Shown: piece by piece, positions 59,524 to 63,600 of the stretch
Layout: each line of letters opens with the position of its first letter
Numbering within the stretch: position 1 is the stretch's first letter
Assembly: GCF_038561935.1 (NCBI RefSeq)
Contig: NZ_CP102770.1
Location: 558,001 to 622,000 of the forward strand
Direction: 5' to 3'
Source of the DNA: Myxococcus stipitatus
Lineage (GTDB): Bacteria > Myxococcota > Myxococcia > Myxococcales > Myxococcaceae
Length of the DNA stretch: 64,000 nucleotides
The notes under the pieces: model-generated
Databases searched by the model: none
What the model was told of the DNA's origin: nothing
The model's input: only the letters and a program-made list of their open reading frames with translations
Made by a program: the position numbers and the translations under genes

Positions 59524-59973
59524 CTACGTCCCGAGTGACTTCCGCATGTGCCGGTGCGGAAGTCCCACGTCGATGAAAGGCTCCGCGTACACGGAATAGC
59601 CCAGCCGTTCGTAGAAGGGGACGACCGTCTGCCGGGCGTGAAGGTGGACGTGGGTGAAGCCGCGTCGCAGCAGCTCCGCCTCCAGCGCCTGGACCAGGCG
59701 GGCGCCCAGCCGCTGACCTTGAAGCCGGGGTGTCACGGCCATCTGGAAGAGGCGCCCGCCGTGGGCGTCCTCGGGGTGGAAGAGGACACACCCCAGCGCC
59801 TCCTCGCCGCGGTGGGCGACCAGGTGGAGGCTCTGTGCCTCGAAGGGAAACAGCACCTGCTCACGGGTGTGGCCCAGCGGCTCGCGCAGCACGCGGAAGC
59901 GCAGCTCCAGCTCCGCGGGGTAGAGCGCGTGGCCGGGCTGGATGAAGGAGAGCTCGAGGTCCGCGGTGCCCAT
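59524..59973 (-). CDS. GNAT-family acetyltransferase
   Basis: A 149-residue protein of the GNAT fold. The acetyl-CoA loop is VTPRLQGQRLGARLVQALE (Q/R-x-x-G-x-G/A type) and the C-terminal strands TVVPFYERLGYSVYAEPFIDVGLPHRHM are typical. Many members of this subfamily acetylate amino sugars, amino acids or proteins; substrate unknown. It is 3 bases downstream of the TonB receptor gene and shares its strand, so the two are probably one operon. Confidence 0.9.
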   Translation of the reverse strand: MGTADLELSFIQPGHALYPAELELRFRVLREPLGHTREQVLFPFEAQSLHLVAHRGEEALGCVLFHPEDAHGGRLFQMAVTPRLQGQRLGARLVQALEAELLRRGFTHVHLHARQTVVPFYERLGYSVYAEPFIDVGLPHRHMRKSLGT

Positions 59974-59976
59974 CGC

Positions 59977-62826
59977 TCAGAAGGTTCCGGTGAGCTGGAG
60001 CGTGAAGGTGCGGCCGTACTGGGGCACCGGCGCGATGGAGTTCTCGTCCGAGACGGGAATCCGGTAGTTGGAGTCGAGCAGGTTGTGGACGCCCGCGAAG
60101 TAGCGCAGGGGGCCGTAGTCGCCGGAGAGGCCGAAGCCGATGAGCAGCGCCTCGCCGCTGTCGGCGCCGCCCGCTCCGGTGGGACGCGCGCTCTGGTACG
60201 TGGCCTGGGTCGCGAAGCGCATGTCTCCATTGCCAATGGGCATCAGCAGGCGCCCGGAGACCAGGTGCGCGGGCGCGGCGGAGGCCACGTCGTCCGAGGC
60301 GTTGCGCAGCTTCACGTAGGAGTAGCTCATGTCCACCAGCAGGTAGCGCCCGGGCTGCCAGTGCACGCCCGCCTCGGCGCCCCACGCCAGCGTGGTGCCG
60401 CTGTCGTTGGCGAAGACGAGGCACGCCGCGGAGCCGCACTCGCCCGAGGGCGTCGCCTCCGGGCCGAGCTGCACCAGCTTGGAGATGCGGTTGTGGTAGC
60501 CGGCCACGGTGAGGCGCAGCTCGTCCGTCAGGTCGTGCGAGTGCTCCAGCTCGAAGGTGGTGATGGTCTCCGGGTCCAGCTTCTCCGGCGCGGCCTGGGT
60601 GATGCCGTCGGCGTAGAACAGCTCGTAGACGTTGGGGGCGCGGAAGGCGTTGCCGGCCACCAGCTTGGTGAGGCCCGCGTCGTAGGGCCGGGCGATGAGG
60701 GCCAGTCGCGGGGTGATGGGCGTGGTGTCCAGGTCCAGGTACTTGTCCAGGCGCACGCCGGCGGAGACGCTCAGCCTCGGGTGCAGCTGCCACTCATCGA
60801 GCAGGTAGGCCGACAACAGGGTGCGCGCCTTGGTCTCCAGCGGCGTCCTTCCGGCGGTCTGCCACACGCGAAGCTGGCCCTGGGCCTCCATGCCCAGCGT
60901 GAGCCGGTTGTTCTTGAAGATGCCCACGCGCGCGCGCAGCTCACCGCTGACCCAGTCCGCGTCACCGCCCTCCTCGCGAGGTCCACCGGCTGCTTCCGGG
61001 TACACGTAGACGCCGTCGTAGCGGCTGAGGTCGAAGGCGGTGCGCGCGGAGAGGCTGAGGCGCTCGGAGAACTCCCGCTCGTAGCGGGCCTCGAGGAAGA
61101 AGCGCAGGTCCTTCACCTTGTTGCCCTCGGTGCCGGGCAGGGTGTTGTAGGGCGCCGTGGGCAGCTCCTTGGTGCGGACGTTGAGGAGGCCCTGGAAGGA
61201 GAAGTCACCCACGCGGGCGCGCAGCGTGCCGGAGGCGGCGCGCTCCGAGTCCAGGCCCTTCACCAGGTGCTCCTGGTTCTGGTCCGTGAGCAGCCGGGTG
61301 GTGTCCGCGCCGGACGCGGTGAGGGCCGCGGCGCTCACCAGCACGGAGCGGTCGCCGCGCTCCCAGGACGCGGTGGCGTGCGCGCGCGTGGTGCCCAGCG
61401 CGCCCACCGCGCCCGTGACCTCCAGGTGCTTGTCCTGTCCCAGCGACTCGCGAGGCACCACGTTGATGACGGCGAAGAAGGCGCCGGTGCCGTAGAGCGA
61501 GCTGCCCGGACCACGCACCACTTCGATGCGCTCGATTTCGAGCAGGTCCACGTTGAAGTCGTGCGCGGCGAAGCCCTGGCCGGCCCACACGTCGTTCATC
61601 GAGTGGCCGTCCCAGAGGATGCTGACGCGGGTGTTGAGGTCGCCCGGAGGCGAGAAGCCGCGCACGCCCAGATAGGTGTACGTGCGGTCGTCGGTGAGGA
61701 AGAAGCCGCGCACGCCGGCGAGCGCCTCGGCGAGGGTGCGCCAGCCGAACGCGCGCAGCTCCTCCTGCGTGAGCACCGTGGTGGAGGCGGGCGCGTCGTC
61801 GACGGCGACCAGGTTCTTGGACGCGGCGCGGACGGGCGGGGGCGCATAGCGCAGCTCCGCGTGGACCTTCACTTCCTCGTCCGCGACGACGGTGACCTTC
61901 TGGCGCAGCGGGCGCACCTCGCGGCTCTCGACCTCCAGCTCGTGCTCACCTTCGGGGAGGGTGACGACGGTGGGGGTGAAGCCCGCGGGCTTGCCGTCCA
62001 CGCGCACGGTGGAGCCATCGCGGTTGGCGGTGACGACGAGTCGGCCCGAGGGCCGGTCCTGGACGCGCAGCGACACCACGAGCGGCACGCTGCCATCGGC
62101 GGGCACGTCCACCACGTACTGGCCGGGGGCATAGCCGGGGGCGCGCACGTAGAGGATGCGCTGGCCGGGAGGCAGGCGGGCGCGGCCGGGGAGCCGGGCG
62201 ATGACGGGGCCGTTGGGAGCATCGCGGACCTCGGCGCCCTCGGGGGTGCCGGTGAGCTCCACGCCGCCGGTGATGAGGAACAGGTCGAAGGTCTGCTCGG
62301 TCTCCTTGCCGCGCGCCAGGGTGATGGTGGCCTCGGTGGGACGGTAGCCGTCCTTCTTCACCATGATTTTGTGACGTCCGGGGGACAGCGCGAGCGTCTG
62401 CGGAGAGCGGCCCCGGCTGCCCAGGTCCATGCGGTCGACGTAGACGTCCGCGCCCTTCGGCACGGTGGTGACCTTGACGAGCGCGACCTTGGGACGCAGC
62501 CGGTCCAGGGAGCGTGAGACCTCCGCGGCGTCCTCGGTGGGCAGGTCCTCCGTCAGCAGGTCGTTGTAGTAGCGGTACGCCTCGTTGAACTTGCCCAGCG
62601 CCTCGAAGCAGCGGGCGATGTTGAAGAGGACGTTGCGGTTGGGCACCAGCCGGTAGCTCGTGAAGTACGAGCGGAGGGCCTCGGTGTACTGGCCCTTGGC
62701 GTAGGCGTCATTGCCCAGCTCGAAGGCGATGTCGGCCTCGTCCGCGTTGTTGTCCGCGTGCGCGGGCGCGGACACGGCCAGGAGGAGCAGCAGGAGGACG
62801 AGGAGGCCAGAGCGAAAAGGAAGCAT
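59977..62826 (-). CDS. TPR-PEGA-TonB-dependent receptor fusion
   Basis: A 949-residue outer membrane protein from ATG 62826 (signal peptide 1-24). Order of parts: TPR-like helices (about 30-130; ADEADIAFELGNDAYAKGQYTEALRSYFTSY, NVLFNIARCFEALGKFNEAYRYYNDLL), a PEGA-type module (about 135-205; GADVYVDRMDLGSRGRSPQTL, LSPGRHKIMVKKDGYRP), a second and third PEGA-like module (about 225-345; GSTVRVDGKPAGFTPTVVTLPEGEHELEVE), then the TonB plug (about 355-465; ASTTVLTQEELRAFGWRTLAEALAG, then VEVVRGPGSSLYGTGAFF) and a 22-strand barrel ending in Phe. Ligand unknown. TPR and PEGA parts in front of a TonB plug are unusual. Confidence 0.88.
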   Translation of the reverse strand: MLPFRSGLLVLLLLLLAVSAPAHADNNADEADIAFELGNDAYAKGQYTEALRSYFTSYRLVPNRNVLFNIARCFEALGKFNEAYRYYNDLLTEDLPTEDAAEVSRSLDRLRPKVALVKVTTVPKGADVYVDRMDLGSRGRSPQTLALSPGRHKIMVKKDGYRPTEATITLARGKETEQTFDLFLITGGVELTGTPEGAEVRDAPNGPVIARLPGRARLPPGQRILYVRAPGYAPGQYVVDVPADGSVPLVVSLRVQDRPSGRLVVTANRDGSTVRVDGKPAGFTPTVVTLPEGEHELEVESREVRPLRQKVTVVADEEVKVHAELRYAPPPVRAASKNLVAVDDAPASTTVLTQEELRAFGWRTLAEALAGVRGFFLTDDRTYTYLGVRGFSPPGDLNTRVSILWDGHSMNDVWAGQGFAAHDFNVDLLEIERIEVVRGPGSSLYGTGAFFAVINVVPRESLGQDKHLEVTGAVGALGTTRAHATASWERGDRSVLVSAAALTASGADTTRLLTDQNQEHLVKGLDSERAASGTLRARVGDFSFQGLLNVRTKELPTAPYNTLPGTEGNKVKDLRFFLEARYEREFSERLSLSARTAFDLSRYDGVYVYPEAAGGPREEGGDADWVSGELRARVGIFKNNRLTLGMEAQGQLRVWQTAGRTPLETKARTLLSAYLLDEWQLHPRLSVSAGVRLDKYLDLDTTPITPRLALIARPYDAGLTKLVAGNAFRAPNVYELFYADGITQAAPEKLDPETITTFELEHSHDLTDELRLTVAGYHNRISKLVQLGPEATPSGECGSAACLVFANDSGTTLAWGAEAGVHWQPGRYLLVDMSYSYVKLRNASDDVASAAPAHLVSGRLLMPIGNGDMRFATQATYQSARPTGAGGADSGEALLIGFGLSGDYGPLRYFAGVHNLLDSNYRIPVSDENSIAPVPQYGRTFTLQLTGTF

Positions 62827-63012: not shown

Positions 63013-63600
63013 GTGGGAGAGGGACCGAAGCGCCCGGCGACATACGAGGACCTGCTCGCACTGCCGGAGCACGTGGTCGGGCAGCTCATCGATGGGGAGC
63101 TCATCGTGATGCCGAGACCGGCCGGTCCTCATGTGAGAGCCCACTCCCACTTGTACGGGGAGCTCTATGGTCCGTTCGGGAGAGGCCGAGGAGGTCCGGG
63201 AGGGTGGCAGTTCTTGATGGAGCCGGAGCTCCACGTCGGTCAGGACGTGCTGGTCCCCGACCTGGCGGGCTGGCGCTGGGGGCGGCTGCTTCCGGAGATG
63301 GCGGACGCGCCGTACTTCACGCTGGCTCCCGACTGGGTCTGCGAGGTGCTGTCCCCCTCCACCGAGGCCGTCGACCGGGTGAAGAAGAAGCGCATCTACG
63401 CCCGGGAAGGCGTGGGCCACATCTGGCTGATAGACCCGAGGGAGCGGATGCTGGAGGTGTTCTGCCTGGCTGGCGGCCAGTGGCTGGAGCTCGGCACGTA
63501 CCACGGAGATGCGCGGGTGCGTGCCGAGCCCTTCGAGGCGCTGGAGTTGGAGCTGGGCGTCTTGTGGCTGTTGCTGGAGCAGCAGCCGAAGACGCCCTGA
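63013..63600 (+). CDS. Uma2-family endonuclease
   Basis: A 195-residue protein from GTG 63013, chosen for length (family about 190) and the GAGGAG upstream; ATG 62965 is possible. It fits the Uma2 PD-(D/E)xK fold: RPATYEDLLALPEHVVGQLIDGELIVMPRPAGPHV, then VLVPDLAGWRWGRLLPE (catalytic Asp), CEVLSPSTEAVDRVKKKRIYAREGVGHIWLIDP (E...K pair). These are small restriction-endonuclease-like proteins of unknown biological role, often in many copies per genome. It is divergent from the TonB receptor gene. Confidence 0.88.
   Translation: MGEGPKRPATYEDLLALPEHVVGQLIDGELIVMPRPAGPHVRAHSHLYGELYGPFGRGRGGPGGWQFLMEPELHVGQDVLVPDLAGWRWGRLLPEMADAPYFTLAPDWVCEVLSPSTEAVDRVKKKRIYAREGVGHIWLIDPRERMLEVFCLAGGQWLELGTYHGDARVRAEPFEALELELGVLWLLLEQQPKTP

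What the first reader, a model, noticed from the sequence alone, without database searches (positions are those of the whole stretch)
59977..62826. TonB-dependent receptor with N-terminal TPR and PEGA modules
One chain holds a signal peptide, TPR-like helices, two or three PEGA-like units, a TonB plug and a barrel ending in Phe. TPR and PEGA parts would hang in the periplasm before the plug and might bind peptidoglycan, TonB partners or a ligand carrier. Fusion order is seen in sequence. I know of no standard receptor class with this order; related proteins may exist in myxobacteria.
Basis: partly seen in the sequence, partly recalled or inferred. Interest (0 to 1): 0.55.

Follow-up and report, generated by a model that had tools for sequence, protein, structure and literature searches.

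The report
Outer-membrane receptor paired with a kinase
A myxobacterial outer-membrane receptor has an extra arm of TPR and PEGA domains in the periplasm and has been inherited, across much of its phylum, together with one inner-membrane protein kinase, which suggests that the two carry a signal across the cell envelope.

Summary
Window 59977-62826 (-) encodes a 949-residue TonB-dependent receptor (TBDR): signal peptide, TPR unit, three PEGA beta-sandwiches, plug, and a barrel ending in Phe. It is no mis-join: 108 of 195 Myxococcota genomes hold a relative, nearly full-length in most. The decisive clue lies outside the window. In distant relatives the upstream neighbour is a Ser/Thr protein kinase with a hydrophobic helix, Pro-rich linker, usually a PEGA domain, and a C-terminal tail ending IKxxR. 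In 60 of 60 genomes with both matches on one contig, the kinase is upstream on the same strand (14 within 1.7 kb, 46 at 34-88 kb); here it is 47.5 kb away. A tailed kinase was read in 98 of 105 genomes whose receptor has, or is taken to have, the arm. None was seen in three genomes with armless relatives, nor among 24 readable kinase ends from 14 related genomes counted as lacking the receptor. Best reading: the outer-membrane half of a trans-envelope receptor/kinase pair, working like FecA/FpvA but with a Hanks-type kinase. AlphaFold2 did not dock the tail on the TPR, so the contact is unproven.

The parts
59977..62826 (-). TPR-PEGA TonB-dependent receptor gene, 949 aa
62755..62826 (-). signal peptide, residues 1-24
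   Evidence: read from the sequence; no signal-peptide program was run
62491..62736 (-). TPR region, residues 31-112 (five helices), with highly conserved residues around RLxPNrNVxfNIAR
   Evidence: Pfam; conservation; model
62284..62484 (-). PEGA 1, residues 115-181
62071..62268 (-). PEGA 2, residues 187-252 (weak to Pfam in this protein)
   Evidence: model; relatives with three Pfam PEGA stretches
61858..62049 (-). PEGA 3, residues 260-323
61819..61842 (-). TonB-box slot, residues 329-336 PPPVRAAS, directly after PEGA 3
   Evidence: the VIA-align range starts at model residue 305 (= residue 329) opposite BtuB residue 6; [VIT]xAAS in 34 of 42 aligned rows
61474..61803 (-). plug domain, residues 342-451
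   Evidence: Pfam
59980..61425 (-). beta-barrel, about residues 468-949, ending in Phe
   Evidence: Pfam; model; best solved match BtuB
59524..59973 (-). GNAT-like acetyltransferase ORF, 3 bp after the receptor's stop; a neighbour in near relatives only, not part of the proposed pair
   Evidence: gene calls by my own script; the GNAT name is from recall, no Pfam run

Best explanation
The gene encodes the outer-membrane half of a two-protein trans-envelope system. The other half is an inner-membrane Hanks-type Ser/Thr kinase with a periplasmic PEGA domain and a conserved C-terminal tail (in this genome G000:C1:668328-669953, minus strand, 47.5 kb upstream on the same strand, outside the window). 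SHOWN: domain anatomy of both proteins, adjacency and order in distant relatives, co-occurrence, and conservation of the tail. INFERRED: membrane topology of the kinase (read from sequence, no topology program run); that the TPR-PEGA arm reaches down from the plug and contacts the kinase's PEGA and/or its IKxxR tail (the TPR groove is the natural candidate for a C-terminal peptide); and that ligand binding or TonB-driven movement at the plug changes that contact and so kinase activity, as FecA/FpvA signal to FecR. My odds: the two proteins work together 0.75; signal runs receptor to kinase rather than the reverse 0.5; TPR binds the tail 0.35. The ligand is unknown.
For: (1) Over 195 Myxococcota genomes, at the thresholds used (receptor E<=1e-60, kinase E<=1e-118): both 94, receptor only 14, kinase only 0, neither 87 (the kinase hit of one of the 94, G107, is doubtful). 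Within family f1 (96 genomes) 84/3/0/9, Fisher p 1.7e-10; with G107 and the receptor fragment of G142 counted against, 83/5/0/8, p 9.7e-9. Neither is corrected for phylogeny. (2) 60 of 60 genomes with both on one contig: same strand, kinase upstream. (3) In gene-called loci of distant relatives, a kinase is directly upstream on the same strand for 11 of 19 TBDR-like genes against 1 of 172 other genes; seven crown-family loci, where the genes lie apart, were left out of this count. (4) Tail, in kinases collected by homology or adjacency and not by their ends: 74 distinct readable ends, R at -1 in 74, I at -5 in 72, K at -4 in 71, behind a linker of high entropy (one non-orthologous neighbour kinase, in L139, was excluded). 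It matches 0 of 21 other distinct kinases of this genome with a readable end (29 of 52 other kinase hits were fetched), and 0 of 24 readable ends in 14 genomes counted as lacking the receptor. (5) The kinase ortholog here is 53% identical over its whole length, E 4.7e-155, next hit 1.6e-110; Pfam gives Pkinase and PEGA, and it ends NLGIKTGR. (6) Co-duplication: paralogous pairs in G103 and G099 are 52.5% (receptor) and 53.6% (kinase) alike, against 32% and 45% between the two pairs of G103. (7) A second TPR-TBDR of this genome, without PEGA, has its own upstream PEGA kinase with another conserved tail, FKDNPY-like, in 27 of 27 kinases readable in 30 loci of near relatives.
Against: AlphaFold2 of a natural read-through chain (kinase tail, stop read as Gly, receptor signal peptide, TPR-PEGA; locus L226) left residues 1-35, the whole kinase part, below pLDDT 50. 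The test is weak: few tail rows, no free C-terminus, and the signal peptide may compete. In 46 of the 60 genomes the genes are 34-88 kb apart, so they are not one operon there. Exceptions: G060 (99% complete) has the receptor but no kinase at E<=1e-85; G026, G139 and G152 (88, 86 and 85% complete) showed none with a tail. Receptor copies without such a kinase beside them: L131, both of L133, L138, L237, L238, L239. The NIAR-type TPR motif also occurs in the second TBDR, so it is no specific signature. Co-occurrence is partly shared ancestry, and the E-value thresholds depend on distance from the query. Four closed second-rank kinases in genomes that have a tailed one lack the tail.
Confidence: 0.55

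Rival explanations
1. An ordinary TonB-energised importer. The TPR-PEGA arm is a structural spacer, peptidoglycan anchor or docking site for TonB or a periplasmic carrier; the kinase is merely co-regulated or regulates uptake from the cytoplasm without touching the arm.
For: Plug and barrel are canonical and closest to BtuB (3rgn: Z 40.5, rmsd 2.4, 530 aligned), and the TonB-box slot is occupied at the position of BtuB's. PEGA is common in this genome, 35 matches.
Against: It does not explain why arm and tailed kinase come and go together, nor the highly conserved TPR.
Confidence: 0.25
2. Reverse control: the kinase senses something in the periplasm (PEGA) and, through its tail, gates or positions the receptor in the outer membrane.
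For: Same comparative data as the best explanation; the direction cannot be read from sequence.
Against: The known precedent (FecA, FpvA) runs from receptor to inner membrane (passages of PMC11658791).
Confidence: 0.12
3. An exporter like Oar, which secretes the protease PopC in M. xanthus; the arm would hold a protein substrate.
For: Oar is a myxobacterial TBDR with an N-terminal CarboxypepD_reg domain (PMC6434023 passages); PF13620 also scores here, 37.7 bits against a cut-off of 32.3.
Against: I saw no candidate substrate gene kept beside it in the gene calls (not tested systematically), and no TPR is mentioned for Oar in the passages seen.
Confidence: 0.05

Closest known systems
FecA/FpvA/FoxA class of signalling TBDRs
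   Same: TBDR with an extra periplasmic N-terminal domain before the TonB box and, for FecA, an inner-membrane partner (PMC11658791 passages)
   Different: No STN domain found; arm is TPR plus three PEGA; proposed partner is a Ser/Thr kinase, not a FecR anti-sigma factor
Oar subclass of TBDRs (M. xanthus MXAN_1450)
   Same: Myxobacterial TBDR with a CarboxypepD_reg N-terminal extension (PMC6434023 passages)
   Different: Oar lies with exbB/exbD/tonB genes and has one such domain; here there are TPR plus three PEGA, and the partner gene is a kinase
BtuB, CirA, PqqU (solved TBDRs)
   Same: Plug and barrel fold
   Different: No TPR-PEGA arm in these structures (alignments start at model residues 303-317, or 296 for the BtuB:TonB complex); 18-21% identity; ligand cannot be inferred
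MXAN0518, TBDR detected in the M. xanthus outer-membrane fraction by one peptide
   Same: Possibly the M. xanthus ortholog, guessed from chromosome position only
   Different: Not tested; no annotated M. xanthus genome was available (PMC3222651 passages)
Hanks-type membrane Ser/Thr kinases (PknB-like)
   Same: Kinase domain, one hydrophobic helix, extracytoplasmic domain
   Different: Extracytoplasmic part is PEGA plus the C-terminal tail; PASTA domains of PknB are from recall

Membership tests
TonB-dependent receptors | Plug PF07715 and barrel PF00593 over the curated cut-offs | tested here: met
   69.2 and 95.9 bits
TonB-dependent receptors | Barrel ends in an aromatic residue; signal peptide present | tested here: met
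   Read from the sequence, (final TGTF); no signal-peptide program run
TonB-dependent receptors | TonB box | tested here: inconclusive
   Slot opposite BtuB residue 6 onward holds PPPVRAAS; [VIT]xAAS in 34 of 42 rows, which is not the usual sequence
FecA/FpvA signalling TBDRs | STN signalling domain PF07660 | tested here: not met
   No STN among 17 Pfam families at E<=1
FecA/FpvA signalling TBDRs | FecR/FecI genes beside the receptor | not tested
   No Pfam run on the neighbours as a set; gene calls show a Ser/Thr kinase in that place in distant relatives
Oar/SusC-type TBDRs | CarboxypepD_reg N-terminal extension | tested here: inconclusive
   PF13620 37.7 bits over cut-off 32.3, overlapping the higher-scoring PEGA
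TPR | TPR repeat over curated cut-off and TPR fold | tested here: met
   TPR_2 28.0 vs 27 bits; Foldseek to 1na3 TMt 0.84, rmsd 1.9, with the ortholog model
PEGA | PF08308 over cut-off; transthyretin-like sandwich | tested here: met
   106.6 vs 20.8 bits; Foldseek to 5aq0, TMt 0.59, with the ortholog model
Hanks-type kinases (the partner) | Pkinase domain with HRD and DFG motifs | tested here: met
   PF00069 120.7 bits; HRDVSPQN and DFGVAKA; activity not testable here

The most novel reading that the evidence does not exclude
A class of trans-envelope signalling in which a TonB-dependent receptor regulates a Hanks-type Ser/Thr kinase: a TPR-PEGA arm on the receptor recognises the kinase's C-terminal IKxxR tail, with a second receptor/kinase pair in the same cells using another tail (FKDNPY-like) as its address.
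Probability: 0.33. Interest if true: 0.82.

Novelty: new variant of a known kind. Interest (0 to 1): 0.62.

Why it matters
Signalling from a TonB-dependent receptor to the cytoplasm is described in the review passages I saw through FecR-type regulators (PMC11658791; the word kinase does not occur in its main text). Myxobacteria hold a very large set of Ser/Thr kinases whose inputs are mostly unknown (from recall); this genome gave 53 kinase hits in one search. If this pair is real, it gives one kinase a receptor, gives PEGA and TPR domains a job in the envelope, and offers a short conserved C-terminal tail as a handle for direct tests. Both genes were found in 84 of 96 genomes of the family at the thresholds used, one of them doubtful, a family that includes the model organism M. 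xanthus, so the tests are practical.

Tried and rejected
Mis-assembly: rejected, since long single frames occur in many genomes. A separate TPR/PEGA gene beside TBDRs of this genome: the PEGA hits next to two TBDRs proved to belong to a kinase (L101) and to a protein with an N-terminal hydrophobic helix behind a kinase (L102), not to a split version of this gene. General excess of kinases near all 20 TBDRs of the genome: looked at by eye; no clear excess within 10 kb beyond these cases. GNAT as functional partner: set aside, because it was seen next to the gene in near relatives only. Tail docking by AlphaFold2: negative, counted against. Tail-only and kinase-PEGA rows were misaligned by MAFFT, so those alignments were dropped and the second structure job went to the full-length receptor. 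No ligand was guessed from fold matches: many TBDRs match alike. A first count of the second kinase's tails used filters that found none and was redone. Rows left out or doubtful: 6 of 36 kinase hits were not fetched; G107's kinase hit looks like a different kinase, cut by the contig end; the tails of G067 and G133 are cut by contig ends; four closed second-rank kinases in G103 (2), G112 and G072 lack the tail, but those genomes have a tailed one; the kinase beside the receptor in L139 (no tail, not the ortholog) was excluded; one kinase of this genome was fetched twice, so the 22 control rows are 21 kinases. One genome counted as lacking the receptor, G142, holds a fragment of it. My gene caller gave no genes for L120 and L121 and missed the receptor in L131. 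Literature: searches returned no paper; one search returned one, PMC9023288, on an iron-starvation sigma factor by its title, seen as a listing only; this covers open-licence PMC text only.

Full report
CHECK. Pfam finds TPR_2, PEGA, Plug and the TBDR barrel in that order. AlphaFold2 on the mature window protein with 40 relatives gives mean pLDDT 89.4 and pTM 0.73: five helices, strands read as three PEGA sandwiches, plug and barrel. Foldseek and VIA-align place plug and barrel nearest BtuB. With the N-terminal part of an ortholog, Foldseek ranks strings of beta-sandwiches in surface proteins and pilins first by E-value (TM at most 0.34); single domains match TPR and transthyretin-like structures. 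No STN domain was found.

NOT A MIS-JOIN. In 195 Myxococcota genomes, 108 hold a relative at E<=1e-60, including all 27 of the genus counted with this one, and most matches cover nearly the whole length in one open frame. The named-genome scan, which uses six peptide patterns, returned seven loci, all from myxobacteria, among them Myxococcus xanthus AM003, Citreicoccus, Hyalangium and Pyxidicoccus. Three distant relatives (G010, G166, G173) match only the plug and barrel and have no TPR or PEGA by Pfam. Other phyla were not searched beyond.

THE NEIGHBOUR. Gene calls by my own script in loci of distant relatives show a Ser/Thr kinase directly upstream on the same strand in most of them. Counted mechanically, this is 11 of 19 TBDR-like genes against 1 of 172 other genes in the same loci; two of the 19 (L122, L125_8) are not of the TPR-PEGA type, and the seven crown-family loci L014-L018, L020 and L139, where no tailed kinase is adjacent, were left out. 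The kinases share a kinase domain, one hydrophobic helix and a Pro-rich stretch (read from sequence) and a conserved C-terminal tail. Pfam finds PEGA in six of the seven of this type that were scanned, L123 being the exception. Comparing, 94 genomes have both genes, 14 the receptor only, none the kinase only, 87 neither. In 60 of 60 genomes with both on one contig the kinase is upstream on the same strand; 14 lie within 1.7 kb and 46 at 34 to 88 kb. In this genome the ortholog is at G000:C1:668328-669953 (minus), 47.5 kb from the receptor and outside the window. It has Pkinase and PEGA and ends NLGIKTGR. The ancestral state is most simply adjacency, with a later separation in crown Myxococcaceae; this is inference.

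THE TAIL. Kinases were collected by homology or by adjacency to the receptor, not by their ends. In the unfiltered set, 74 distinct readable ends have R at the last position in 74, I at -5 in 72 and K at -4 in 71, after a linker of high entropy; the two without I end FKTKxxR and belong to one paralogous pair type. After further fetching, 100 distinct ends pass the tail pattern and four closed kinases do not; those four are second-rank hits in three genomes that have a tailed kinase. A tail I(K/A/R)xxR was read in 98 genomes (99 labels, one genome labelled twice). Of the 108 receptor genomes, 98 have such a kinase; three (G067, G133, G107) are cut by contig ends, G107 probably being another kinase; four (G026, G060, G139, G152) showed none; and three (G010, G166, G173) have receptors without the arm, with no tailed kinase among hits at E<=1e-85. 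Of the four, G060 is 99% complete and is a real exception. Controls: 0 of 21 other distinct kinases of this genome with a readable end carry the tail, from 29 of 52 other kinase hits fetched. Of 36 kinase hits in 14 genomes counted as lacking the receptor, 30 were read, 24 had a readable end, and 0 of 24 carry it; one of these genomes, G142, holds a receptor fragment. Within family f1 the association is 84/3/0/9 (p 1.7e-10), or 83/5/0/8 (p 9.7e-9) with G107 and G142 counted against it; relatedness is not corrected for.

CO-DUPLICATION AND A SECOND PAIR. Paralogous receptor/kinase pairs in G103 and G099 resemble each other (52.5% and 53.6%) more than the two pairs inside G103 do (32% and 45%). 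Elsewhere in this genome another TBDR (L101, 827 aa) has a TPR but no PEGA and sits directly behind a kinase with PEGA. It is found in 86 of 96 family genomes. In 27 of 27 kinases readable in 30 loci of near relatives, the upstream kinase ends in a different conserved tail, [FY]K[DE][DN]PY plus at most one residue; its conservation there could in part be recent ancestry.

MECHANISM. Shown: anatomy, adjacency in distant relatives, co-occurrence and tail conservation. Inferred: the arm contacts the kinase's periplasmic part and passes ligand or TonB state of the plug to the kinase. The TPR groove is the natural seat for a C-terminal peptide, as in chaperone TPR domains (from recall). AlphaFold2 did not show this: in a natural read-through chain the kinase part stayed below pLDDT 50. 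The TonB-box slot (PPPVRAAS) follows PEGA 3 directly; in FpvA the signalling domain pairs with the TonB-box strand (passages of PMC11658791), so a similar lock is conceivable here.

KNOWN AND NEW. As a receptor it belongs to the TBDRs. It works perhaps like FecA/FpvA but fails their defining STN domain. Papers seen: passages of PMC6434023 (Oar), PMC8546572, PMC3222651 (M. xanthus outer-membrane proteins, MXAN0518), PMC6791715 (nothing useful), PMC11658791, PMC9738627; other papers only as listings. Searches combining TonB-dependent with PEGA, TPR or kinase terms returned no paper or one that I did not open, within open-licence PMC text. Verdict: real, conserved, a new variant of signalling-type TBDRs, with the kinase link as the main point.

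Noticed in passing
window 59524-59973 (-): A GNAT-like acetyltransferase ORF starts 3 bp after the receptor's stop; it follows the receptor in the six loci L014-L018 and L020, but was not seen there in L139, L019 or the more distant loci.
   Followed up: partly
L101:7501-11585 (G000:C1:8347500-8351584): Second receptor/kinase pair: PEGA kinase ending KFKDNPY directly before a TPR-TBDR without PEGA that has a canonical-looking TonB box (ERVVTAS).
   Followed up: yes
L102:5979-10379: Third arrangement: kinase, a PEGA protein with an N-terminal hydrophobic helix, then a TBDR without TPR by Pfam.
   Followed up: no
L238 (G060): The near-complete genome with the receptor but no tailed kinase also has a changed TonB-box slot and plug start (AAATGRPTPMDALAAS), as if constraint were relaxed.
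   Followed up: partly
L133:3817-9450 (G112): Two TPR-PEGA receptors in tandem with no kinase beside them.
   Followed up: no
window 63217-63600 (+): Uma2-like ORF (name from recall) divergent from the receptor, and a 1478-aa gene beyond it (helicase-like by recall); some relatives lack one or both at this place.
   Followed up: no
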